Shown in pieces: positions 41,706-61,365 of a DNA stretch of 64,000 bases. Positions within the stretch are counted from its first letter, which is position 1. The number at the start of each line of letters is the position of its first letter. Under the pieces are notes generated by a model. It made no database searches and was not told the origin of the DNA. It saw nothing but the letters and a program-made list of their open reading frames with translations. The position numbers were made by a program, and so were the translations under genes. Origin of the DNA: Streptomyces ortus (GTDB taxonomy: Bacteria; Actinomycetota; Actinomycetes; Streptomycetales; Streptomycetaceae); NCBI RefSeq assembly GCF_026341275.1, contig NZ_JAIFZO010000002.1:5424118-5488117 (forward strand). The letters run 5' to 3'.

Positions 41706-42670
41706 ACAGCAACGAGACGCCCCGCGGGCCCGTCGACTCGTCCCGCATACCCCGGTACGCGGGCCCGGCGACCTTCGCCCGGCTGCCCCGCCTCGACGAG
41801 GTCGGCACCACCGATGTCGCCGTGGTCGGCGTGCCGTTCGACGCGGGTGTCTCGTACCGGCCCGGGGCCCGCTTCGGCGGGAACGCGATCCGCGAGGCGA
41901 GCCGGCTGCTGCGGCCCTACAACCCGGCGCAGGACGCCTCGCCGTTCGCCCTCGCGCAGGTCGCGGACGCCGGTGACATCGCCGCGAACCCGTTCGACAT
42001 CAACGAGGCCGTGGAGACCATCGAGGGCGCCGCCGACGAACTCCTCGGCACCGGCGCCCGGCTGATGACCCTCGGCGGCGACCACACCATCGCGCTGCCC
42101 CTGCTGCGCGCGGTGGCCCGCAAGCACGGCCCGGTCGCGCTGCTGCACTTCGACGCGCACCTCGACACCTGGGACACGTACTTCGGCGCCGAGTACACGC
42201 ACGGCACCCCGTTCCGGCGGGCCGTCGAGGAGGGCATCCTCGACACCGAGGCGCTCTCCCACGTGGGTACGCGCGGGCCGCTGTACGGCAGGCAGGACCT
42301 CACCGACGACGAGAAGCTGGGCTTCGGCATCGTCACCTCCGCCGACATCTACCGGCGCGGCGCCGACGAGGTCGCCGACCAGCTGCGGCAGCGCATCGGC
42401 GACCGTCCGCTCTACATCTCCATCGACATCGACTGCCTCGACCCGGCCCACGCGCCCGGCACGGGGACGCCGGAGGCGGGCGGCATGACCTCCCGCGAAC
42501 TCCTGGAGATCCTGCGCGGACTCGCCTCCTGCCACCTGGTCTCCGCGGACGTCGTCGAGGTCGCCCCCGCGTACGATCACGCCGAGATCACCTCCGTCGC
42601 CGCCTCCCACACGGCGTACGAGCTCACGACCATCATGTCCCGCCAGATTGCAGAGGCCCGAGCGCAGTGA
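41702..42670 (+). CDS. speB: Agmatinase / ureohydrolase family
   Basis: A 322-residue arginase-family metalloenzyme. The dinuclear manganese site is complete: [19 protein letters not shown] and [19 protein letters not shown]. It hydrolyses a guanidino group to urea and an amine. ATG at 41702 overlaps the symporter stop, and the stop overlaps the next gene's GTG. Because the operon also encodes an uptake protein, a catabolic guanidino acid such as guanidinobutyrate or guanidinopropionate is as plausible as agmatine. Confidence 0.93.
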
Positions 42671-44355
42671 CCCACGACCACGACCTGGTGCTCCGCCCGA
42701 CCCCGGAGCAGACGGAGGCCGCGCTCGACCCGCCGCCCGGCCGCAACGGCGGAGACCTGGTCGTGGAGACCCTCACCGGTCTCGGCGCGACCACCGTCTT
42801 CGGGCTGCCCGGCCAGCACGCGCTCGGCATGTTCGACGCGCTGCGCCGCTCCGACCTCACGTACATCGGGCTGCGGGTCGAGAACAACGCCGGGTTCGCG
42901 GCGGACGCGTACGGCCGGATCACCGGCGAGGCCGCCCCGTTGCTCCTGTCGACCGGGCCCGGCGCGCTGACCTCGCTGGCCGCGCTCCAGGAGGCGGCAG
43001 CCGCCAGCGCCCCCGTCCTCGCGATCAGCAGCCAGATCCCGGGCGCGGGGCTCGGCGGCGGCCGGCACGGCTACCTCCACGAACTCCCCGACCAGCAGGC
43101 CTCGTTCAGGGGCGTGGTGAAGTCCGTCCACACGGTCCGTACGCAGTCGCAGATCCCCTCCGCGATCGCCGAGGCATGGGAGTCGGCGCTCACCGCCCCG
43201 CACGGGCCAGTCTGGGTGGAGATCCCGCAGGACGTGCTGCTCGCCGAGACCGCGCTGCCCGCCGTCACCGCCGTGGACGCCGCGCCCCACGATCTTCCGC
43301 CGCGCCCCGAACTGACCGCCGTGGCCGCCGACCTGCTCGCGAACGCGGCCCGGCCGGTGATCATCGCGGGCGGCGGAGTCGTACGCGCCGACGCGTCGGG
43401 CAAGCTGCGGCAGCTCGCCGAGCGGCTGAACGCGCCCGTCGTCACCACCTTCGGCGGCAAGGGCGCCTTCCCCTGGAACCATCCGCTCTCGCTGCGGTCC
43501 TGGCTGGAGGACCGGCACACCACGGACTTCCTGGAGGACGCCGACGTCGTCCTCGTGGTCGGTTCGGGGCTGGGCGAACTCTCCTCGAACTACTACACGT
43601 TCAAGCCGCGCGGCCGGGTGATCCAGATCGAGGCCGACCTCGGGAAACTGGAGTCCAACCACCCCGCTCTCGGCATCCACGCGGACGCCCGCCTCGCCCT
43701 GTCGGCGCTCCTCGAAACCATCACGGAGAAGCGGCAGGACGCGACGGCCGCCGACCGCGTACGGACCGTGCTCGACCTCGTCCGCGAGCGGATCGACGCC
43801 CAGGAGCTCACCCTGGAGCAGCAGGTGCTGGCCGCGGTGCGGGAGGCCCTGCCCGACCGGTCGGCCAGTTTCTGGGACATGACGATCCTCGCCTACTGGG
43901 CCTGGTCCGCCTTCGACGCCCGGCGCCCCAACACCATGCACTCCGCCCAGGGCGCGGGCGGCCTCGGCTACGCCTTCCCGGCGGCGATCGGCGGCGCGGT
44001 CGCCGACCCCACCCACCCGGTCCTCGCGGTCTCCGGCGACGGCGGCGCGCTCTACTCCATCGCCGAACTCGCCACCGCCAGGCAGCACGACCTCGACGTG
44101 ACCTGGCTGATCGTCGACGACGGCGGTTACGGCATCCTGCGCGAGTACATGACGGACGCCTTCGGCCGGTCCACCGCCACGGAACTGACCCGCCCGGACT
44201 ATGTGGCGCTCGCGGAGTCCTTCGGCGTCCCGGGCGTACGGACCACCCCGGACACCCTCGCCGCCGACCTCGCCAAGGCCCTCGGCACGCCCGGCCCCTC
44301 GGTGGTCGTGCTGCCGGCCCTGTTGCGGATGTTCGCACCGACGCACCTGGACTGA
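42667..44355 (+). CDS. Thiamine diphosphate-dependent enzyme, acetolactate synthase-like
   Basis: 562 residues with the three ThDP-enzyme domains. The N-terminal Pyr domain has [14 protein letters not shown] and the catalytic Glu in [18 protein letters not shown]. The central domain has a Rossmann-like fold ([13 protein letters not shown]). The C-terminal PP domain has the ThDP motif [36 protein letters not shown] at 42667 overlaps the agmatinase stop. It is not part of an ilvBN arrangement: no small subunit gene is present. It may decarboxylate or condense a 2-oxo acid made from the imported compound. The exact reaction is unknown. Confidence 0.85.
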
Positions 44356-49642: not shown

Positions 49643-50896
49643 GTGCTACTGAGGTTCCGTGTCGCGAACGTACGGTCGCTGCGTGATGAACAGGAGCTGT
49701 CCTTCGTCGGGTCCGAGGACGGGACGAGCGGGGCAGCCCGTCCAGCAGAGCTGGCGGGCGGCCGGTCGGTGGACGTGCTTCCCCTGATCGGCATTTTCGG
49801 CGCCAACGCGTCGGGCAAGTCGAATGTGCTGGCCGCGATGGTCGACATGCGTACCGCTGTCCTCAACTCCTACGCCCGCTGGGCTTCGTACGACGGCATT
49901 CCGCGCTCTGTCTTCGCACTCGACCCGAAAGGGCAGAGCGAGCCGAGCTTTTTCGAGGTCGATCTCGTCATGGACGGCGTGCGCTGGACGTACGGGTTCG
50001 AACTCGGTGGGACCCAGGTCGAAGCCGAATGGCTGCACAGTTATCCGCGTGGTCACCGGCAGGTGTGGCTCGACCGCGACGCTTCCCGGGCAGAGGTGTA
50101 CGAATGGCCGGGAGCCCGGGTCAAGGACCGGGCGCAGCTCGTGCGGCGCACTCGCCCGAACGCGCTTCTGCTCTCCACCGCGGGGACGGACAACCACCCG
50201 CAGCTGTCCCCTCTCTTCCACTGGTTCCGCCGCAACCTGTGGCTGATCAACCCGGAGGACGCGCGGGCGCAGCGTGAGGCGTTCACCAGACAGGAACTTT
50301 CCGGAGCCAGGGCCCGCCGCATCGAGGAGCTGTTGCGGGTGGCCGACCTCGGCATCACAGGCACCGAACTCGTCGATGAGGGCAAGGGCCGGTCGACGGT
50401 GAAGCTGGTCCACCGTTCGATGACGGGCGAGGTCGCCTTCGACTGGCAGGCCGAGTCACTCGGCACCCGCTCCTGGTTCGCTCTGCTCGGCCCGTTGCTC
50501 CTGGCCCTGGACGAGGGCGCGGTGCTGCTGGTCGACGAGCTGGACGCGAGCCTGCATCCGCGGTTCGCCGCCGAAGTCGTCCGGCTCTTCCACGACCCCT
50601 ACGCCAACCCCAACGGCGCGCAGCTGGTATTCACCTCGCACGACCCGTCAGTGCTGACCACGCCGAGCGGTGGGCGACTGCTGGAGCCCGCTCAGGTGTG
50701 GCTGGCGGAGAAGGGCAAGGACGGGGCGACGGATCTCTACCCGCTGACCGCGGCGTCCCCGGGCGAGGGCGAGGACCTGATGAAGTCGTATCTCGCCGGG
50801 GCCTTCGGCGCGGTCCCGTCACTCATGGAGGGGCAGATCGCCCGACGGCTGCTGGCCGCCGGTGAGTACGCCGAGGACGAGGTGGAACAGGGCTGA
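49643..50896 (+). CDS. rloA: RloA-like AAA/SMC-type ATPase (AbiL-type defence ATPase)
   Basis: A 417-residue ABC/SMC-type ATPase of the AAA_15/AAA_21 class. Walker A is GANASGKS (residues 53-60), a signature-like ESLGTRS lies at 271-277, Walker B is VLLVDELDASLHP (294-306) and the switch histidine is in FTSHDPSVL. GTG at 49643 is 5 nt after GGAGAGGAGG; the longer frame to 49544 lacks such support. The stop overlaps the RloB ATG by one base, so the two are coupled. RloA/RloB pairs occur beside type I restriction loci and as AbiL phage-abortive systems; a defence role is inferred from that and from the neighbours. Confidence 0.9.
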   Translation: MLLRFRVANVRSLRDEQELSFVGSEDGTSGAARPAELAGGRSVDVLPLIGIFGANASGKSNVLAAMVDMRTAVLNSYARWASYDGIPRSVFALDPKGQSEPSFFEVDLVMDGVRWTYGFELGGTQVEAEWLHSYPRGHRQVWLDRDASRAEVYEWPGARVKDRAQLVRRTRPNALLLSTAGTDNHPQLSPLFHWFRRNLWLINPEDARAQREAFTRQELSGARARRIEELLRVADLGITGTELVDEGKGRSTVKLVHRSMTGEVAFDWQAESLGTRSWFALLGPLLLALDEGAVLLVDELDASLHPRFAAEVVRLFHDPYANPNGAQLVFTSHDPSVLTTPSGGRLLEPAQVWLAEKGKDGATDLYPLTAASPGEGEDLMKSYLAGAFGAVPSLMEGQIARRLLAAGEYAEDEVEQG

Positions 50897-51573
50897 TGGC
50901 GAGGACGAGGGGGAAGGACTCGCTGGGTCCGACGCAGCGTCGCGGGCGGCGCAAGAGGGTCGTCCATGTCTTCACCGAGGGGCTGGTCACGGAACCCTCG
51001 TACATCGAGATCGTCAAACAGCACGGCGTCCCGGCGGATCCCGCGATGACCGTGGAGGTGCGCATCGCGAACGCCTCCGCCCCCGGCTCGCAGCGCAAGC
51101 CGCTCAAGCTGGTCGAGGCGGCTGTCCGGCTGATGCGGGACGAGCAGCGGCAGGCGAAGCGCAGCGGGCTGGAGAAGAAGTACCTGCCGCAGGTCTGGTG
51201 CGTCTTCGACCGGGACGAGCACGAGGGCATCGAGACCGCGTTGAAGCAGGCACGGGAGGGTGACGTCAGGGTCGCTTTCTCCCATCCCTGCTTCGAGGTC
51301 TGGCGGCTGCTGCACCACAAGTCGGTCACCGGAACGTTCGCAGGGGTGTGCGGCCAGGTGACGGTGAGACTGCCCTTCGCGAAGACTCCGAAGGACGCGT
51401 CGAACATCAAGCTGGTGCTGCCGCACCAGGTCTCCGGAGGCTATCTGGACGCCAGGAAACGCGCTCTCCAGATGAACGCACAGCACGGTGACCATGTGGC
51501 TCTCGTCAACCGGGACCCGTACACCGACGTGCACGAATTCGTGGAGCAGGGGCTCGGGATCGCCTCGTACTGA
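50896..51573 (+). CDS. rloB: RloB-family protein (AbiL partner, Toprim-like)
   Basis: A 225-residue RloB-like protein. Conserved segments are [16 protein letters not shown] (Glu28 and Glu33), [10 protein letters not shown] (Asp105, Asp107) and [13 protein letters not shown] (129-141). The acidic spacing, a Glu early and a DxD later, resembles a Toprim nuclease centre, so with RloA it may form a split version of an OLD-type ATPase-nuclease; this is inference. It is the natural partner of the preceding ATPase and lies 125 bp upstream of hsdM. Confidence 0.88.
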
Positions 51574-51698: not shown

Positions 51699-54305
51699 GT
51701 GGCCAAGCTCACGCTCGCGCAGTTGGAGCGGCATCTGTTCGCCGCAGCGGACATCCTCCGGGGGACGATGGATGCCTCCGAGTACAAGGACTACATCTTC
51801 GGGCTGCTCTTCCTGAAGCGGGCCAACGACGAGTTCGAAGCGGCGCGGGAGGAGATCAGGCAGTACGCGAGCAGTGAACTGGGCCTGACCGACGAGATGC
51901 TGTCCGGTTTCCTTGAGCAGGAGTCCGAGTACAGCGAGCGTGACGTGCTCTTCGTACCGAAGAACGCCCGCTGGAAGTGGATCTCCTCGGCCACCCACAA
52001 CATCACCGAGGACCGGTTGCGTCCGGCGCTGCAGGCGCTGGAGGGACAGAACGCCAAGCTCCGAGGTCTCTTCGACCACCTCGACTTCAACCGCATCGGG
52101 GGCTCCGGAGCGGCTGCGGGCGCGGCCAGACTCGCCGACCAACGGCTGAAGCTGCTCATCGCGCACTTCGGGCGCATCCGGCTCCGTACGGACGACTTCG
52201 AGTTCCCCGACCTGATCGGTGCCGCGTACGAGTACCTGATCAAGGAGTTCGCGGACTCGGCCGGCCGCAAGGGCGGTGAGTTCTACACCCCGCGCGCGGT
52301 GGTCCGCATGATGGTCGAGTTGCTGGGCCCCCGCCAGGGGATGCGGATCTACGACCCGTGCGTCGGCTCGGGCGGCATGCTCATCCACGCCAAGGAGTAC
52401 GTGGAGGAGCACGGCGGCGACACGTCGGACATGTTCTTCGCCGGCCAGGACGCGAACAGCGGCTCCTGGATCATGTCGACGATGAACATGGTCCTGCACG
52501 GAGTGCGCCGCTTCGACCTGCACACCGGCGACACGCTCGCCGAACCGGCACATGTGCCGAGGTCGGACGCTGACCGCTTCGACGGCGTGCTCAGCAACCC
52601 GCCGTTCTCCATGGACTACGTGCTCGACGATCTGGCGCACGGCGCGCAGCGCACGACCTACGGGGTGACCAGCGAACGCGGCAAGGCCGACCTGATGTTT
52701 CTCCAGCACATGCTGTGGGAGACGAAGCGCGAAGGCCGCGGCGGCATGGTCATCACCGTCATGCCGCACGGTGTGCTGTTCCGCGGAGGCGGCGAGCAGG
52801 CGATCCGTACGAAGCTGCTCGACGAGGACGCCGTCGAGGCGGTCATCGGCCTCGCGCCGAACATCTTCTACGGCACCGGCATCCCGGCCTGCATCCTGGT
52901 GCTGCGTCCGCCGGGCATGAAGGACTCGGCGCGGGCGGGCAAGGTGCTGTTCGTCAACGCGGACCGCGAGTTCCATGCGGAGCGGGCGCAGAACGTGCTG
53001 CTGCCGGAGCACGCCGAGAAGATCACGTCGGCGTTCCATGAGTACGCGGAGGTGCCCGCCTTCTCGCGTGTCGTCAGCCGCGAAGAACTGCGGGACAACG
53101 ACGACAACCTCAACATCCGCCGCTACGTGGACAACACACCGCCGCCGGAGCCGCAGGACGTGCGGGCGCACCTGGTGGGAGGCATGCCGCGTGCGGAGAT
53201 CGAGGCGAAGAAGGAACTGCTCGACTCGTACGAGCTGGTGCTGACCGACCTGTTCGCGGAGCGGGACCCGGCCGACGAGAAGTACGTGGACTTCCTGCCG
53301 GAGGGGCAGAGGCCGGACGCGGCGCGGCTGGGGGAGCTGGCCCGCCCGCGCGAGGACGCGTTGCGGACGGCGTTCGACAAGTGGTGGGCCGCTGAGGCGC
53401 GACAGTTGGAGGCGGTTGCGGCTACGCCGGAGCGGTTGGCGGACCTGACGCCCTCGGAGCGCAAGGCCGCGCTGATGGCGGTGCGCGGCTCGCTGATGGA
53501 GTCGTTCGTGGAGCAACTGCGAGGGGTCGGCCTGCTGGACCGGTACGCGCTGGCGGGAGCGGTGGCCGGCTGGTGGTACGAGGCCAAGTACGACCTGCTC
53601 GCGCTGTCGGAGAACGGGTTCGCGGGGGTTGTGGACGGCTGGGTCGAGAACGTCGAGACGATGCTCGCGCCCGAGCAGGACCCGAAGACGCGGAAGCTGA
53701 AGAAGCGGACGGCGGCGGAGCGGCGGCAGGCGTACGACCACAAGGTGGTCGCGGCCATCGCGCCCGACTTCCTGGAGGAGCTGGCGGCGGCGGACGCGCG
53801 GAAGGCGGAGCTGGACGCGCGGTGGAAGGAGCTGAACGCGGAGCCGGATGCTTCGGAGGACGGTGAGGGCGACGAACGTGACGAGGACGCTGTCACACGG
53901 GAGGCCGTGACCCTGAGCGTGGAGCAACTGGCGGAAATCGCCCAGGTGAAGAAGGACCGCACGAAGGTAGGGGCGCTGATCAAGCGGCTTGAGGGGGACT
54001 TCTGGTTCGAGCGGGCTGCTGCTTCGGCGGGGCAGTCCCGGTTGGGGGAGGAGGAGCCGCGGTTGTTCCGGGCTCGGGCCGCGTTGAGCCCGGAGGGGGA
54101 GCGGCGGGTCGTGCTGGACCTGCTGCGAGACGACCTGGTCGGGAAGCTGGATGGTCATGTGGTGCGTCGGCGTCGGGAATTGGCGGATACGTACGGGGTG
54201 TGGGAGTCGAAGTACGCGGTGTCGTTGAGGGAGATCCGGGCTGGGCGGGAGAAGGCGGCGGAGACGCTGGACGGGTTTCTGAAGGAGCTTGGCTATGTCG
54301 GCTGA
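51699..54305 (+). CDS. hsdM: Type I restriction-modification methyltransferase subunit HsdM
   Basis: 868 residues from GTG at 51699. HsdM_N helices (about 1-165) are followed by the N6-adenine methyltransferase domain: GGEFYTP (192-198), SAM motif [10 protein letters not shown] (219-227) and catalytic NPPF (300-303). It methylates adenine in the target set by HsdS. The typical HsdM ends near 500-540 residues; here a further 330 or so follow, rich in Lys/Glu/Arg helices ([38 protein letters not shown]). HsdM subunits of this longer class exist, but the extension's role is unclear. The 3' end overlaps hsdS. Confidence 0.95.
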
Positions 54306-55497
54306 CGTGAGTGGCACTCGTTTCCTGCCTCTTGAGGCCCTTGCTGAGATCACGGGTGGTGTAGCCCTTGGCGGAGGTGCTCCAGGCGGTGCTGTCGAGT
54401 TGCCTTATTTGCGCGTAGCGAATGTCCAAGACGGATACATCGATACGCACGACGTCAAGACAGTTGGGGTGCCCGCGAGTGCGGTTAGGCGATTTCGTCT
54501 GATGCGCGGAGACGTTCTGCTGACTGAGGGCGGGGATCTCGACAAGCTTGGCCGGGGCGCTGTTTGGGACGGTCGGATCGATCCTTGCCTGCATCAAAAT
54601 CACATTTTCAAGGTGCGGTGCGATCGGGCGAAACTCTTGCCCGAGTTTCTATCGCTTTACATGGCTTCCGGTGAGGGGAAATCTTTCTTCTTGCGTGTTG
54701 CTAAGCAGACAACGAATCTGGCTTCGATCAGCTCGTCACAGCTGAAAGCCATGCCGGTTCCTGTGCACTCGCTTGCCGGGCAGCGGCGGATCGTCGACGT
54801 GATCGAAACCGTGTCGGCGCAGGAGCGTGCCATCGAGGCGTCGATCGCGAAGCTGGAAGCATTCAGTGGTGGTGTGATGGCGGAACTCGCGGACCTGGAG
54901 TGCGGAACGCTAAATGATGTCCTTGATTTTGGTCCACAGAACGGGATCTACAAGCCTGGATCCTCCTATGGGCTTGAGGGGACACCGATCGTTCGTATTG
55001 ACAGCTTTAGAGGTGGCCCATCGGATTTTACCCGGAACCTCCTCCGTGTTGCGGTGGCCAACGAGGAGGTCGAGCGCTATAAGCTTGTCACCGGTGACGT
55101 TCTGATCAACCGGGTGAACACCCCGGAACTGGTTGGAAAGTCAACTGCTGTAGGCGAGGTGCTGGAATCGACGGTTTTTGAGTCGAATATGATGCGGTGC
55201 AAGTTGCGTGCCGATCGAGCTGTTCCTGCTTTTGTTGAAACGTGGCTGGGAGGGAGAACGGCGAAGGCGCACTTCCGTGCACGCGCTAAGAGCGCAATTT
55301 CGCAAGCCAGTATCAATGGCAGTGATGTGCGTAGTTGCCCGTTCCCGAAACTTCATATTGCTGAACAGTTGGAGTTTCTAGATCGACTTGCAGCGGTCAG
55401 AGGGCAGCAGCGATTTGAGAATGGTGAGCTGGTCAAGCTCAGGAAACTCAAGCAGGGGATCATGGATGGGTTGTTGGATCGCCGCGTCAGCGTCTGA
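54295..55497 (+). CDS. hsdS: Type I restriction-modification specificity subunit HsdS
   Basis: 400 residues with two target recognition domains. The first begins [12 protein letters not shown] and carries [14 protein letters not shown], and the second carries [12 protein letters not shown]; each is followed by a helical spacer ([24 protein letters not shown] and [34 protein letters not shown] in pieces). The ATG at 54295, with GAAGGAG 7 nt upstream, overlaps the hsdM stop. Base composition is visibly more AT-rich than any neighbour and codon choice is relaxed, suggesting recent acquisition or recombination of this specificity gene. The recognition sequence cannot be predicted. Confidence 0.95.
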
Positions 55498-55584: not shown

Positions 55585-55908
55585 TCAACTTCGATGTCGC
55601 GGCAATGGCGGTGCCGGCGGTCGACGATGTGACATGGCCCCCGTCACACGACAGGGGCTGGTCGCCGGGAGAGAGGGAGTCCTTGTCCATGCGGGGAACT
55701 TGCCGTCCTTGACGGCTGTGACGAACGATGACCAGTCAGCCGCCGGGAATACCAGCGCGGGACCGTGCGGGATCTTGGAGTCGCGGACAGGGACGCCCGA
55801 GGGGTGGTCATCCAGCACCTCGATGCAACTGCCTCCCTCGCTGTTGCTGTAGGACGACTTCCGCCAGCCTCGCAGTGCTGCAGCGTTCGGGATTATTCGG
55901 TCAGTCAT
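55585..55908 (-). CDS. DUF397 domain protein
   Basis: A 107-residue protein with a DUF397 domain at residues about 14-75 (GWRKSSYSNSEGGSCIEV ... VPVRDSKIPHGPALVFPAADWSSFVTAV) and a Pro/Arg-rich tail. DUF397 proteins accompany XRE/DUF5753 regulators in Streptomyces (BldB/WhiJ-type systems) and probably act with them. Its ATG overlaps the XRE gene's stop by 8 nt. It runs opposite to the hsd genes. Confidence 0.88.
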   Translation of the reverse strand: MTDRIIPNAAALRGWRKSSYSNSEGGSCIEVLDDHPSGVPVRDSKIPHGPALVFPAADWSSFVTAVKDGKFPAWTRTPSLPATSPCRVTGAMSHRRPPAPPLPRHRS

Positions 55909-56695
55909 GGTGTCCGTAGTCCTTCGCTGTCGCCCTCAGTAGGGCCAATGAATCTTTTAGCGGCACTGCGTCGCTCATCGCGAGATCGTAGCGGCCCTGC
56001 AACTCCCGAACCACGGACGGGGAGTCGTGCATCTTCCCCATGCGCAGGCCCTCGCTGTACGCCACGGGCGGTTGGTCGTCGAACCACATCAGGCTGAGCA
56101 TGTTCTCCATCAGCGGGTGGAAGCCCAGGCTGAACGGCATCACATGGACCCGTACCCGGCCCCTCTCTGCAAGGCGAACCATGTGCATGATCTGCTCCGC
56201 CATCACATCGGGCCCGCCCACGACCCGCCGCAACACCGCCTCGTCCAGCAGTGCCCAAACTACCGGCGTCACCGGATCGTCAAGGATCTTCGCGCGCTCA
56301 CGCCGTGTGACAACGAGCCTGTCACATTCCCTTTCACCCACAGGAGGGAACGACGTGCCCAGAACCGCACGTGCGTACCGTTCCGTCTGGAGGATGCCCG
56401 GTACGAACGACAGGGCGAACTCCCGGATCATCACCGCCTGTTGTTCGAGCAGCCGAGCCGCCTCGAAGTAGCTGGCGACCGCCGCGTCCTCCGCTGGCAG
56501 GAAACTGCTCAGCACATTTCCCGTGTTCAGGACCCTATCCAGGCGCCGGGCGTCCTCCTTGGAAGGAACGCGCCGCCCCGCCTCGATGTGCGAGATGTGC
56601 GAACGAGTCATGACCGCCGCGTCGGCCAACTCCTGCTGTGTCAGCCCTGCCGTCTCGCGTTGCTGCTTGAGCCAGTCACCGTACGTGCTGGTCAT
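55901..56695 (-). CDS. XRE-family regulator with DUF5753 domain (WhiJ-like)
   Basis: 264 residues. The helix-turn-helix at about 9-60 reads LKQQRETAGLTQQELADAAVMTRSHISHIEAGRR. The DUF5753 ligand-like domain covers about 95-255, with FVPGILQTERYARAVLG, VTRRERAKIL and VMPFSLGFHPLMENMLSLMWF. It is the upstream partner of the DUF397 gene and divergent from a small Streptomyces gene. Such modules influence development in S. coelicolor. Sitting between hsdS and hsdR, it might also affect restriction gene expression. Confidence 0.9.
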   Translation of the reverse strand: MTSTYGDWLKQQRETAGLTQQELADAAVMTRSHISHIEAGRRVPSKEDARRLDRVLNTGNVLSSFLPAEDAAVASYFEAARLLEQQAVMIREFALSFVPGILQTERYARAVLGTSFPPVGERECDRLVVTRRERAKILDDPVTPVVWALLDEAVLRRVVGGPDVMAEQIMHMVRLAERGRVRVHVMPFSLGFHPLMENMLSLMWFDDQPPVAYSEGLRMGKMHDSPSVVRELQGRYDLAMSDAVPLKDSLALLRATAKDYGHHD

Positions 56696-57544: not shown

Positions 57545-57807
57545 TCCGCCCGCGCCAACCGGCGCCCCCCCCGCACACCCTGCACACCTTGACCGGGGGC
57601 GTACTTCACCTCCTCCGCGTACGCCCCGGTCCGTCGCGCACCACGAGGAGGAGAGGCGGGGATCCCTGGTCGCCCACCAGAATCCTCCAGACGCCCGCGT
57701 CCTCGTCCTCGCCCACCCCGTCCGGCCGGATCCCTCCCCTCCGCCCCGCCCAAGGCGCAGAATGGATCACTTCGGCGGGCAGGGACAGCGGGCGGAAGGC
57801 GCGGCAC

Positions 57808-60800
57808 ATGGCGGTGCAGGTCGAACGGGACGAGGTGGAGCGGCCGTTCGTCCAGCAGCTCACCGCCATGGGCTGGACGCACGTGGCCGGTACGGAGGTC
57901 GGTACGCTCGACGCCGGTACGCCTGTCCTTGCCGAGGAGCTCAAGGCCGCCCTGCGGCGCATCAACGTCCGGGCGGCGGACCGCGAACCCTGGATGGACG
58001 ACACCGATGTCGCCCGCTCCATCGCGGAACTGGCATCCGTCCCACTCGGGAAGGGCGTCGTACAGGCCAATTTCGCCGCCACCGACCTGCTGCTCAGCGG
58101 ATGCGTCCTCACAGGGCCCTCCGCCGCGCACGGCGGTGCCTCCGCCACCGTCCAGTACATCGAATGGCACCCCGACCACGTCACGCTCAACGACTTCACC
58201 GTCGTCGACCAGCTCCGCGTCAAGAACCGTTCCGGGGACGTGTCGATACTCGACATCGTCCTCTTCGTGAACGGCATCCCCCTCGTCGCAGTCGAGTGCA
58301 AGAGCCCCGACCTCGCCGAGCCCGTCCGCAGCGCCGTACTCGATCTGCGGCACTACGCCGGCGACCCGATCGACGACGACGAGCGCACCGGAACCGACCT
58401 GCCGCTCCCGGGCGGCGTACCCGAGCTGTTCCGGACCGTGCAGTTGCTGGTCGCGGCGACCGGCGAGACCGCCCATCTCGGCACCGTCACCTCCTCGCCC
58501 GAGCGCTTCCATCCGTGGCGCAGCGTGAGCCCGGAGAGGGAGAGCACGCTCAGGAAGGAGCTGCCGGACGGCACCGGCAAGCTGACCGAGCAGCACAAGC
58601 TCGTGGGTGTCGTCCTGCGGCCTGCCGCCCTGCTGAACTTCGTACGCCATTACGTCATCCCCCTGCCCGTGGAGACCGAGTCCGGGGCGGTCCGGACCGT
58701 CAAGGCGGTCGCCCGGCACCAGCAGTACCGGGCCGCCGAGAAGGCTGTACGCAAGCTGCTCTCCGGCCGTCCGCGCGGCGGGCCGGTGCCCGACGACGAG
58801 CGTGGCGGTGTCATCTGGCACACCCAGGGCTCCGGCAAGAGTCTGACCATGACCTTCCTCGTGCGCCGGGTCCATCTGCACCCGAAGCTCAGCGAGTTCA
58901 CGGTCGTGATCGTCACCGACCGCACCCAGCTCCAGGACCAGCTGTCCAAGACCCTGAAGCTGAGCGAGTCGGATGTCGAGAGAGCCGAGACCCGTACGCA
59001 GATGGAGGGACTGCTGAGGGACGGTGGCCGACGCGTCGTCTTCGCGATGATCCAGAAGTACGGGGGCGGGTTCACCTTCGCCGCCGAAGCCGAGGGTGAC
59101 GCCGACGACCGTGATCTCACGAAGGAGTACGACGACGCCGAGCGTGCCGGAAAGGGCCGCAAACGGCGCAAGGGGCCGCCGCCCGTCCCGAACTTCCCCG
59201 AGTGCAACACCTCGTCGGACATCCTGGTCCTGGTCGACGAGGCGCACCGCTCGCACACCAGCGTCCTGCACGCGGCCCTGCGCAAGGCCATCCCGAACGC
59301 CGCGAAGATCGGTTTCACGGGTACGCCGATCATCACCGGCGAGGCCTCCGACACCCGCCGGATCTTCAGCGGCGGCCCGGACAGCGGCTTCCTGGACGAG
59401 TACCGGATGGAGGAGGCCGAGCACGACGGCGTCGTCGTGCGCATCCGCTATGAAGGGCGCACCGGTGAGGGAAGGGTTTATGACAAGGAAGGTCTGGATC
59501 GCTCCTTCGAGGACCTGATCCGCGACCGCACGGACGAGGAGAGGGCGACCCTCCTCAACCGGTGGCCCACCGAACGGGACGTCGCCGAGTCGTGGCCGAT
59601 GATCTGTGCCAAGGCCGAGGACATGCTGGAGCACTGGGTGTGCTGGGTGCTGCCCTCGGGCGGGTTCAAGGCCCAGGTGGCGGCCGTGAGCCGGAAGGCG
59701 GCCGTCGAGTACCACCACGCACTGCGCCGGGCTCGCGACCAACTCCTTTCCGAACTCGTCGAGTTCAGGCCGGAGTCCGTTCACGGGATCCCGCTCAAAG
59801 AGCTTCCACGGCATCTCCGCTACCTCTACCAGGCGTACGAGTTCCGGGCGATCCTGCGCCGCATCGACTTCGTGCCGGTCGTCTCCCCGGGAGCGGAACG
59901 CAAGCGCCGCAAGTGGCTTCACTGGACCGACCCGAGCCGTCAGAAGGCGTACATCGATCGCTTCCACGAAGCGTTCCCACAGCTGCCGCCCGAGCCCGAC
60001 TGGGTCGCCGCCACGCCCTTCAACGCTCCGGAGCCGGTCATCCACGGGAACGGCCTCGGCGCCGACACTCCCTGGTCCGACATGCCGACCGGGCAGCCGG
60101 AGCCGGGACCATCGAAGACCGAGGTTCCCGACCCCGTACATCCGGAGAGCCCCATCGCCTTCCTGATCGTGAAGTCGATGCTTCTCACCGGATTCGATGC
60201 CCCGCGCGAGCAGGTGCTCTACCTCGACCGGCCCATCCGGGACGCCGAGCTGCTCCAGGCCGTTGCCCGCGTCAACCGGCCCGCGCCAGGTAAGAAAGTC
60301 GGGTACGTCGTGGACTACTACGGCGTGTTCGAGCACCTTTCCAGTGCGCTGGCCGACTACCGGCAGGCCGACGTCGACGACACCATGCGAAGTCTGTCCA
60401 CGGAGGTGAAAGCCCTCGCGCCCGCCGCCGCGCGGGTACGCGCGTTCCTGAGCGAGCAGGGTGTGACGGACGCGGACCTCACCGACCTCGCCCGACTGCG
60501 CGAGGCCGTCCTGTCCTTCGAGGACGAGACCGTCCGTCTCCGTTTCGACGAGGTGTTCCACGAGTTCCTCGCCGTACTGGAACGGGTACTTCCGCACGAG
60601 GACGCGTTGGACCACCTTGCCGACGCCCGGCGTTGGGGGATGCTGCAGAAGCGTGTCCGGCGTCTGTACCGGGACGACACGGGCGGGACGTTCACCCTGC
60701 GCCGGTACGGACGCAAGGTACGAGCCATGATTGCCGACCATTTGGAAGGACCGGAGATCGAGCAGGTCATCCCGCCCGTCTCGCTCACCTCACCCGTCTT

Positions 60801-61365
60801 CGACGACATGGTGCGTGAGCTGCCTCCGCGCGAGGCTGCGGCCGAGATGGGGCATGCCCTCCGGTTCCATCTGGAGGAGCGGGTCAAGAGGGAGGACCCG
60901 GAGAAGTACGACAGGCTTTCCAGGCGACTGGAGGAGATCCTGAAGCAGATGCCCGGTCGTTTCGAGGAGCAGGTCGAGGAGTTCGAGATGCTCATCGAGC
61001 ACGCCAGGCAGGAGGACGAGGAGGACCCCGCCCTCGCAGGGCTCAGCCTGCTGGAGCAGCGTGTCCACCGGCTTCTGGATCAGCTCCTTGAGGACAACCC
61101 GGGAATCGAGGGTGGCCAGGAGGACACGCGACCTCTGGTCGTCGCCGTGTGTGACACCGCGGCGAGCACGATGTCCAAGGCTTCCTACCAGGGGCAGCAC
61201 CAGGACATCAACCGTCTCGCGAACGGCATCCAGACACAGCTGATTCGTAGCGGCCTCAGGCCCGCATCCGCCGACTGGGGGCCGCTGACCCATGTCTCCC
61301 AGCGACTCGCGGCATACGCGGAGATCAACCGGCAGCAGTTCCTGAGCCGGGCCAGGGGAGAATAG
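57808..61365 (+). CDS. hsdR: Type I restriction-modification endonuclease/translocase subunit HsdR
   Basis: 1185 residues. The ATG at 57808 is 9 nt after GGAAGG; the longer frame to 57589 is repeat-like. The N-terminal HSDR_N nuclease domain has Asp149 and Glu163-Cys-Lys165 (LDIVLFVNG, VAVECKSP). The SF2 motor has Walker A TQGSGKS (339-345) and DEAH (477-480), with a later FDAPREQVLYLDRP and QAVARVNRP motif VI region, and the C-terminus is helical (DUF3387-like). It translocates DNA with ATP and cuts at a distance from unmethylated sites bound by HsdM/HsdS. It is separated from hsdS by a 2.3-kb regulatory module. Confidence 0.96.
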   Translation: MAVQVERDEVERPFVQQLTAMGWTHVAGTEVGTLDAGTPVLAEELKAALRRINVRAADREPWMDDTDVARSIAELASVPLGKGVVQANFAATDLLLSGCVLTGPSAAHGGASATVQYIEWHPDHVTLNDFTVVDQLRVKNRSGDVSILDIVLFVNGIPLVAVECKSPDLAEPVRSAVLDLRHYAGDPIDDDERTGTDLPLPGGVPELFRTVQLLVAATGETAHLGTVTSSPERFHPWRSVSPERESTLRKELPDGTGKLTEQHKLVGVVLRPAALLNFVRHYVIPLPVETESGAVRTVKAVARHQQYRAAEKAVRKLLSGRPRGGPVPDDERGGVIWHTQGSGKSLTMTFLVRRVHLHPKLSEFTVVIVTDRTQLQDQLSKTLKLSESDVERAETRTQMEGLLRDGGRRVVFAMIQKYGGGFTFAAEAEGDADDRDLTKEYDDAERAGKGRKRRKGPPPVPNFPECNTSSDILVLVDEAHRSHTSVLHAALRKAIPNAAKIGFTGTPIITGEASDTRRIFSGGPDSGFLDEYRMEEAEHDGVVVRIRYEGRTGEGRVYDKEGLDRSFEDLIRDRTDEERATLLNRWPTERDVAESWPMICAKAEDMLEHWVCWVLPSGGFKAQVAAVSRKAAVEYHHALRRARDQLLSELVEFRPESVHGIPLKELPRHLRYLYQAYEFRAILRRIDFVPVVSPGAERKRRKWLHWTDPSRQKAYIDRFHEAFPQLPPEPDWVAATPFNAPEPVIHGNGLGADTPWSDMPTGQPEPGPSKTEVPDPVHPESPIAFLIVKSMLLTGFDAPREQVLYLDRPIRDAELLQAVARVNRPAPGKKVGYVVDYYGVFEHLSSALADYRQADVDDTMRSLSTEVKALAPAAARVRAFLSEQGVTDADLTDLARLREAVLSFEDETVRLRFDEVFHEFLAVLERVLPHEDALDHLADARRWGMLQKRVRRLYRDDTGGTFTLRRYGRKVRAMIADHLEGPEIEQVIPPVSLTSPVFDDMVRELPPREAAAEMGHALRFHLEERVKREDPEKYDRLSRRLEEILKQMPGRFEEQVEEFEMLIEHARQEDEEDPALAGLSLLEQRVHRLLDQLLEDNPGIEGGQEDTRPLVVAVCDTAASTMSKASYQGQHQDINRLANGIQTQLIRSGLRPASADWGPLTHVSQRLAAYAEINRQQFLSRARGE

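What the first reader, a model, noticed from the sequence alone, without database searches (positions are those of the whole stretch)
49643..51573. RloA/RloB may be a split OLD-type ATPase-Toprim nuclease
RloA has a full SMC-like ATPase. RloB has Glu in FTEG, Glu33, and the acidic pair Asp105/Asp107 in a pattern like Toprim catalytic residues. Coupled translation (one-base overlap) fits a stoichiometric complex.
Basis: inference. Interest (0 to 1): 0.55.

Follow-up and report, generated by a model that had tools for sequence, protein, structure and literature searches.

The report
Split ATPase-nuclease phage-defence gene pair

Summary
RloA (49643-50896) is a complete SMC/Rad50-type ABC ATPase; RloB (50896-51573) overlaps it by one base and carries E28, E33, D105 and D107. 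PADLOC calls the pair AbiLi/AbiLii. The Toprim reading holds: the RloB model (pLDDT 90) has the Toprim order of elements, and a profile comparison aligns it with OLD-type Toprim domains (E 3e-4) in catalytic register, above controls. E28, E33, D105, D107 and E134 are invariant or nearly so in 75 sequences and match the five acidic ligands of the OLD two-metal site. A direct fold search was inconclusive. The family-level idea is in print. Less known is the context: in Streptomyces one lineage of type I HsdM sits beside RloB in 29 of 31 cases, yet in six loci the hsd genes are deleted or broken while rloAB stays intact, and elsewhere RloAB stands alone. This argues against a PrrC-like design in which Hsd proteins silence the nuclease. 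Best reading: an autonomous, RloA-controlled Toprim effector, long co-inherited with a type I restriction system. Substrate and trigger are unknown.

The parts
49643..50896 (+). rloA (AbiLi-like): SMC/Rad50-type ABC ATPase, 417 aa, GTG start
   Evidence: AAA_21 3.5e-41; AbiLi PDLC02335 4.9e-84; model pLDDT 87.7; Rad50/SMC/PtuA heads Z 17-20
50896..51573 (+). rloB (AbiLii-like): Toprim-type nuclease, 225 aa; metal A candidates E28, D105, D107; metal B candidates E33, E134; basic N-terminal tail 1-21
   Evidence: PF13707 7.5e-28; AbiLii PDLC02337 4.9e-23; model pLDDT 90.4; profile match to OLD-like Toprim; residues; tail charge
51699..54305 (+). hsdM, type I DNA methyltransferase, 868 aa, DPCVGSGG and NPPF motifs
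   Evidence: N6_Mtase 4.2e-91; MTase_I 2.2e-247; motifs
54289..55497 (+). hsdS, type I specificity subunit, 402 aa
   Evidence: Specificity_I 3.1e-69; Pfam Methylase_S below its cut-off, 16.2 of 22 bits
55585..56695 (-). DUF397 protein plus XRE/DUF5753 regulator, a pair on the opposite strand between hsdS and hsdR
   Evidence: DUF397 1.2e-21, DUF5753 4.4e-48; the pair follows hsdS on the opposite strand in 18 of the 29 relatives with hsdM (counted by eye)
57589..61365 (+). hsdR, type I restriction subunit, 1258 aa, GSGKS, DEAH and ECK motifs
   Evidence: TIGR00348 9.5e-111; HSDR_N 2.6e-20; motifs

Best explanation
RloA/RloB is an AbiL-type two-gene phage-defence module. RloA is an SMC-like ABC ATPase that forms a complex with RloB and senses infection (inferred). 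RloB is a small two-metal Toprim nuclease: E28, D105 and D107 bind metal A, and E33 and E134 bind metal B (assigned by alignment, not by assay). Coupled translation keeps the two in step. By analogy with PARIS, RloA holds RloB inactive and a phage factor triggers it to cut a nucleic acid the cell needs, stopping infection at the cost of the cell (inferred). The module has been inherited together with the type I restriction operon behind it, but does not need that operon to be kept quiet.
For: AbiLi/AbiLii profiles match both genes. RloA model: Rad50/SMC/PtuA head, Z 17-20. RloB model: pLDDT 90.4, order b-a-b-a-b-a-b with E28 after strand 1 and D105xD107 after strand 3. hhalign: RloB against 25 OLD-like Toprim domains E 3.3e-4, against a motif-selected 12 of these E 9.4e-5; reversed OLD profiles 0.27-0.6; PIN 0.13 and DMRL synthase 0.051; known-relative yardstick OLD against DUF4435 3.8e-4. 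Acidic ligands invariant or nearly so in 75 sequences and matching the TsOLD ligands E377, D431, D433 and D381, E480 (PMC7049728, passages). RloA adjacent in 74 of 75 loci. Published: an RloB-family (D44) toxin from C. algidicarnis is neutralised by its AAA partner (PMC10440598, section 11 part 1); F. nucleatum AbiLii is toxic in E. coli (PMC3985639, passages). Autonomy: hsd genes deleted with rloAB kept; no HsdM found near RloB in the 35 non-Streptomyces-type loci parsed.
Against: Foldseek against the PDB gave no match at E <= 0.001 and VIA-align listed no Toprim protein that I recognise among its 50 rows. hhalign gave no signal to RecR Toprim or to DUF4435/AriB-type domains (E 0.30 and 0.34), although RecR also failed against OLD, so that comparison has little power. 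L. lactis AbiLii was not toxic in E. coli, and F. nucleatum AbiLi did not counteract its AbiLii (PMC3985639). No activity, complex or trigger has been shown for this pair.
Confidence: 0.8

Rival explanations
1. RloAB is a dedicated guard subunit of the type I enzyme, like PrrC with EcoprrI: Hsd proteins hold the nuclease silent and an anti-restriction factor unleashes it.
For: 28 of 31 HsdM homologues of this type lie within 470 bases of RloB, one more 3 kb away. RloB and HsdR distances correlate, r 0.91, 19 loci. PrrC is described as silenced by a linked type I enzyme and activated by a phage anti-restriction factor (PMC2610378, abstract start in a listing).
Against: Eight loci have decayed hsd genes; in six of them (L036, L039, L044, L046, L155, L165) RloA and RloB are full length, which a nuclease kept silent only by Hsd proteins should not tolerate. 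RloAB stands without type I genes elsewhere.
Confidence: 0.1
2. RloAB attacks invading DNA directly, as single-chain OLD nucleases do, and works beside the restriction enzyme without killing the cell.
For: The nearest profile match is to OLD-like Toprim domains; TsOLD cuts DNA in vitro with the same ligand set (PMC7049728, passages); RloB has a strongly basic N-terminal tail in 73 of 75 sequences.
Against: The closest split system with known chemistry, PARIS AriB, cuts tRNA (PMC12409363, passages); RloB-family proteins can be toxic when expressed alone.
Confidence: 0.3
3. RloB is a Rossmann-like acidic protein that binds a nucleotide or another ligand and is no nuclease.
For: Structural neighbours listed are generic alpha/beta folds such as lumazine synthase, Z up to 8.0 for the top row.
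Against: Five invariant or nearly invariant acidic residues in the OLD two-metal arrangement and the in-register profile match.
Confidence: 0.06

Closest known systems
AbiL (AbiLi/AbiLii) of Lactococcus lactis and relatives; RloA/RloB of type I restriction loci
   Same: Both genes match the PADLOC AbiLi and AbiLii profiles; two-gene order ATPase then RloB; the RloB family was already noted in type I restriction operons (PMC10440598 citing Miller 2005, passages).
   Different: Chromosomal Streptomyces copy; stable association with one HsdM lineage down to about 50% identity; phage resistance untested.
PARIS (AriA/AriB), proposed class 4 OLD
   Same: Separate SMC-like ATPase and Toprim genes; RloA also matches an AriA profile (PDLC02980, 3.3e-42).
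   Different: AriB is a DUF4435 protein (label recalled); RloB has no DUF4435 match at E <= 1 and no profile signal to it. RloB's second acidic residue lies 5 residues after the first.
Single-chain OLD nucleases and GajA
   Same: ABC ATPase plus Toprim; same acidic ligands by alignment.
   Different: Two polypeptides here; RloB's EG-x-x-T-E motif is one residue longer than the OLD EG-x-T-E.
Septu PtuA/PtuB and retron Ec78/Ec83 effectors
   Same: RloA model resembles PtuA heads, Z 17-18.
   Different: The partner nuclease PtuB is HNH (PMC10440598, passage); RloB matches only PF13707.
PrrC/RloC anticodon nucleases
   Same: ABC ATPase-linked nuclease next to type I restriction genes (PrrC: PMC2610378, abstract start).
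   Different: RloAB is two proteins with a Toprim-like effector and survives loss of hsd genes.

Membership tests
AbiL (RloA/RloB) | ATPase subunit matches the AbiLi profile | tested here: met
   PDLC02335, E 4.9e-84
AbiL (RloA/RloB) | Effector matches AbiLii / RloB profile | tested here: met
   PDLC02337 E 4.9e-23, best stretch at profile positions 23-84 of 170; PF13707 98.5 bits against a cut-off of 31.5
AbiL (RloA/RloB) | Two adjacent co-directional genes | tested here: met
   one-base overlap; RloA found in 74 of 75 related loci
AbiL (RloA/RloB) | Abortive infection on phage challenge | not testable with these tools
   needs a phage assay
Toprim superfamily | Catalytic Glu after strand 1 and DxD after strand 3 | tested here: met
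   model strands 20-27 and 99-105; residues
Toprim superfamily | Profile similarity to known Toprim domains | tested here: met
   OLD-like TOPRIM E 3.3e-4 with 25 sequences, controls 0.05 or worse; no signal to RecR or DUF4435
Toprim superfamily | Structural match to a solved Toprim domain | tested here: inconclusive
   no Toprim row recognised in the lists
PARIS | AriB-type DUF4435 effector | tested here: not met
   no DUF4435 match at E <= 1
Single-chain OLD nuclease | ATPase and Toprim in one polypeptide | tested here: not met
   two open reading frames
Type I restriction-modification (downstream genes) | hsdM, hsdS and hsdR with catalytic motifs | tested here: met
PrrC-like guard of a type I enzyme | Nuclease needs Hsd proteins to stay silent | tested here: inconclusive
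   comparative evidence against: rloAB kept without intact hsd genes in six loci; no experiment

The most novel reading that the evidence does not exclude
RloAB is a back-up arm of its type I restriction system: RloA itself recognises phage anti-restriction proteins (as AriA recognises Ocr), so a phage that disarms the restriction enzyme triggers RloB. This would explain why this HsdM lineage is almost never found without RloAB while RloAB can live without it.
Probability: 0.25. Interest if true: 0.6.

Novelty: new member of a known kind. Interest (0 to 1): 0.3.

Why it matters
It assigns a concrete active site (E28, D105, D107; E33, E134) to a Pfam family called only 'RloB-like', for which searches found no solved relative by sequence. 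It also shows a defence pair that is co-inherited with, yet separable from, a type I restriction operon. Whether such neighbours guard restriction systems can be tested directly.

Tried and rejected
Fold searches of the RloB model: Foldseek PDB best E 0.013; VIA best Z 8.0 to 2p62; mostly generic alpha/beta folds, no Toprim row recognised, so not used as support. BFVD gave only an RloB-like phage protein at E <= 0.001 (E 5.6e-8), which confirms the family and nothing more. Sequence searches of the PDB with RloB and with its profile found no credible relative.

First hhalign round with 7 OLD-like sequences was weak (E 0.01); enlarged to 25. Six OLD loci were dropped there because the contig ended within the flank and the match position could not be placed; L167 and L171 were left out by hand after misreading. 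The 12-sequence set was chosen by the motif EG.[ST]E and therefore leans towards RloB; the 25-sequence set is the fair test.

Considered and rejected: PARIS (no DUF4435 match); silencing by Hsd proteins. A search for DUF4435 relatives in viral contigs found none. Literature searches on RloB, AbiLii and AbiL with Toprim or Streptomyces: by title and abstract start, no paper listed treats RloAB in Streptomyces, but 'AbiL' and 'AbiLii' also hit unrelated strings.

Full report
What is there. The window is Streptomyces-like DNA; the nearest named relative of RloB is S. dioscori A217, 99% identical. rloA runs from a GTG at 49643, behind a strong ribosome-binding sequence, to the stop ending at 50896. 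rloB starts on the last base of that stop and ends at 51573. A complete type I restriction-modification operon follows: hsdM, hsdS, hsdR, with the expected catalytic motifs. A DUF397 plus XRE/DUF5753 pair sits on the opposite strand between hsdS and hsdR.

RloA. Pfam gives AAA_21 (3.5e-41) and PADLOC gives AbiLi (4.9e-84). A profile of 45 sequences (window plus 44 of the 75 loci) finds PtuA, retron, SMC and OLD chains in the PDB. The AlphaFold2 model (pLDDT 87.7) matches Rad50, SMC and PtuA heads at Z 17-20 over 254-315 residues. Among 74 sequences, three or four do not reach these positions; in the rest the Walker A (G53, N55, G58, K59) and signature (E271, S272, G274, T275) residues never vary, and D298, E299, H305 and H333 each have one deviant. 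So 'full SMC-like ATPase' is right.

RloB. Pfam gives only RloB PF13707; PADLOC gives AbiLii. The model has pLDDT 90.4 and pTM 0.85, with the order strand 20-27, helix 32-43, strand 52-57, helix 69-90, strand 99-105, helix 112-121, strand 125-130, helix 134-139. E28 follows strand 1 and D105-x-D107 closes strand 3, as in Toprim domains (established knowledge of the fold). Foldseek and VIA-align against the PDB did not list a protein that I recognise as Toprim, so I tested the relation by profiles. RloB (50 sequences: window plus 49 of the 75 loci) against 25 OLD-like Toprim domains gave E 3.3e-4; against a motif-selected 12 of these, E 9.4e-5. Reversed OLD profiles gave 0.27 and 0.6, PIN 0.13, DMRL synthase 0.051, RecR Toprim 0.30, DUF4435 0.34. 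The yardstick OLD against DUF4435 gave 3.8e-4, and OLD against RecR failed (0.12), so the method sees only near subfamilies. Unprompted, the alignment pairs E28-G29, T32-E33 and D105-x-D107 with the OLD E-G, T-E and D-x-D (motif-selected set; in the unselected set the gap at the DxD is placed differently). TsOLD binds metal A with E377, D431, D433 and metal B with D381, S478, E480 (PMC7049728, passages). RloB keeps E28 (74/74), D105 (75/75), D107 (74/75, one Glu), E33 (74/74) and E134 (75/75, just after strand 4), plus H140 (75/75). The E134 to E480 equivalence is my inference from position.

Prior knowledge. PMC10440598 (passages; section 11 part 1; reference passage) states that RloB is related to OLD_TOPRIM by HHpred, that the family includes AbiLii and occurs in type I restriction operons, and that a C. 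algidicarnis TOPRIM_OLD(D44):AAA pair behaves as toxin and antitoxin. PMC12409363 (passages) lists AbiL among ABC ATPase-Toprim defence systems and describes AriA holding AriB inactive until phage proteins such as Ocr release it, and AriB as a tRNase. PMC3985639 (passages) found F. nucleatum AbiLii toxic in E. coli, L. lactis AbiLii not toxic, and no antitoxin effect of F. nucleatum AbiLi. The family-level interpretation is therefore known.

Neighbourhood. The scan for RloB relatives gave 75 loci, chosen by similarity to this RloB and so not a frequency sample. Among the 39 Streptomyces-type loci (L011-L049; a few are from other actinomycetes), 29 have hsdM directly behind rloB, 5 keep only restriction remnants and 5 show no trace. 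In the 35 other loci parsed (L050-L085 without L078), none shows HsdM; 28 of these 35 hold at least 3 kb downstream. In a separate draw of 295 Streptomyces genomes, searched independently with RloB (61 places in 56 genomes) and HsdM (38 places in 34 genomes at E <= 1e-100), 31 HsdM of this type (E <= 2e-167, a cut placed in a visible gap after seeing the list) include 28 within 470 bases of RloB, one 3 kb away, one at a contig end with RloB on another contig (G485), and one without RloB (G307, with another gene order). Of the 7 weaker HsdM rows, one is near RloB (G393, 616 bases, one stop inside).

RloAB outlives the restriction genes. Against the intact locus L040, the five loci L036, L039, L044, L046 and L049 show different deletion ends; four keep both rlo genes full length and L049 has a truncated RloB of 163 aa. 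Genome loci L155 and L165 keep full RloAB with hsdM fragments, while in L160 RloB is broken too. Among the 29 loci with hsdM, RloB is full length (219-231 aa) in all. Within a sub-clade of 11 loci (counting L049), mean dN/dS is 0.15 (RloA) and 0.24 (RloB) between restriction-bearing pairs and 0.20 and 0.28 between restriction-less pairs: still purifying, slightly relaxed, with losses too recent for a strong statement. Distances correlate for RloB-HsdR (r 0.91, 19 loci), RloA-HsdM (0.73, 29), RloB-HsdM (0.48, 29) and HsdM-HsdR (0.94, 19), which fits long co-inheritance.

Mechanism. Shown by computation: a complete ATPase, a Toprim-like effector with its ligands, tight gene coupling, co-inheritance with but independence from the hsd genes. 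Inferred: complex formation, RloA control of RloB, phage triggering, nuclease activity, cell arrest. The deletions argue against Hsd proteins being the silencer, unlike PrrC. RNA or DNA as substrate is open; I lean to a cell-arresting activity because family members can be toxic alone.

Verdict. Observation confirmed, interpretation supported, family already described. The residue assignment and the Streptomyces restriction linkage with its one-way loss are the modest additions.

Noticed in passing
window 55585-56695 (-): A DUF397 plus XRE/DUF5753 pair lies on the opposite strand between hsdS and hsdR. The same pair follows hsdS in 18 of 29 relatives with hsdM and remains in L044, L049 and L165 after hsdM is lost; its role in the operon is unknown.
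   Followed up: partly
L030, L040, L041, L042, L047, just upstream of rloA: A 160-240 base copy of the 3' end of the gene homologous to window 42667-44355 (70-73% identical to the window gene) abuts the left edge of the rloAB cassette, like a scar of integration at that gene's end. No such copy was seen in the window at the DNA level.
   Followed up: partly
RloB residues 1-21 and relatives: The disordered N-terminal tail is strongly basic (net charge +3 or more) in 73 of 75 sequences; the other two had tails too short to score.
   Followed up: partly
L011-L049: RloB diverges faster than RloA (mean protein distance 0.41 against 0.25; HsdM 0.26, HsdS 0.69), as if the effector or its contacts were under diversifying pressure.
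   Followed up: no
L146 (G307): The only HsdM of this type found in a genome without RloB; its hsdS and hsdM are in another order and no rlo gene is present nearby.
   Followed up: no
L057:3735-4583: An RloB relative without a detectable RloA beside it; the upstream open reading frames do not resemble RloA.
   Followed up: no
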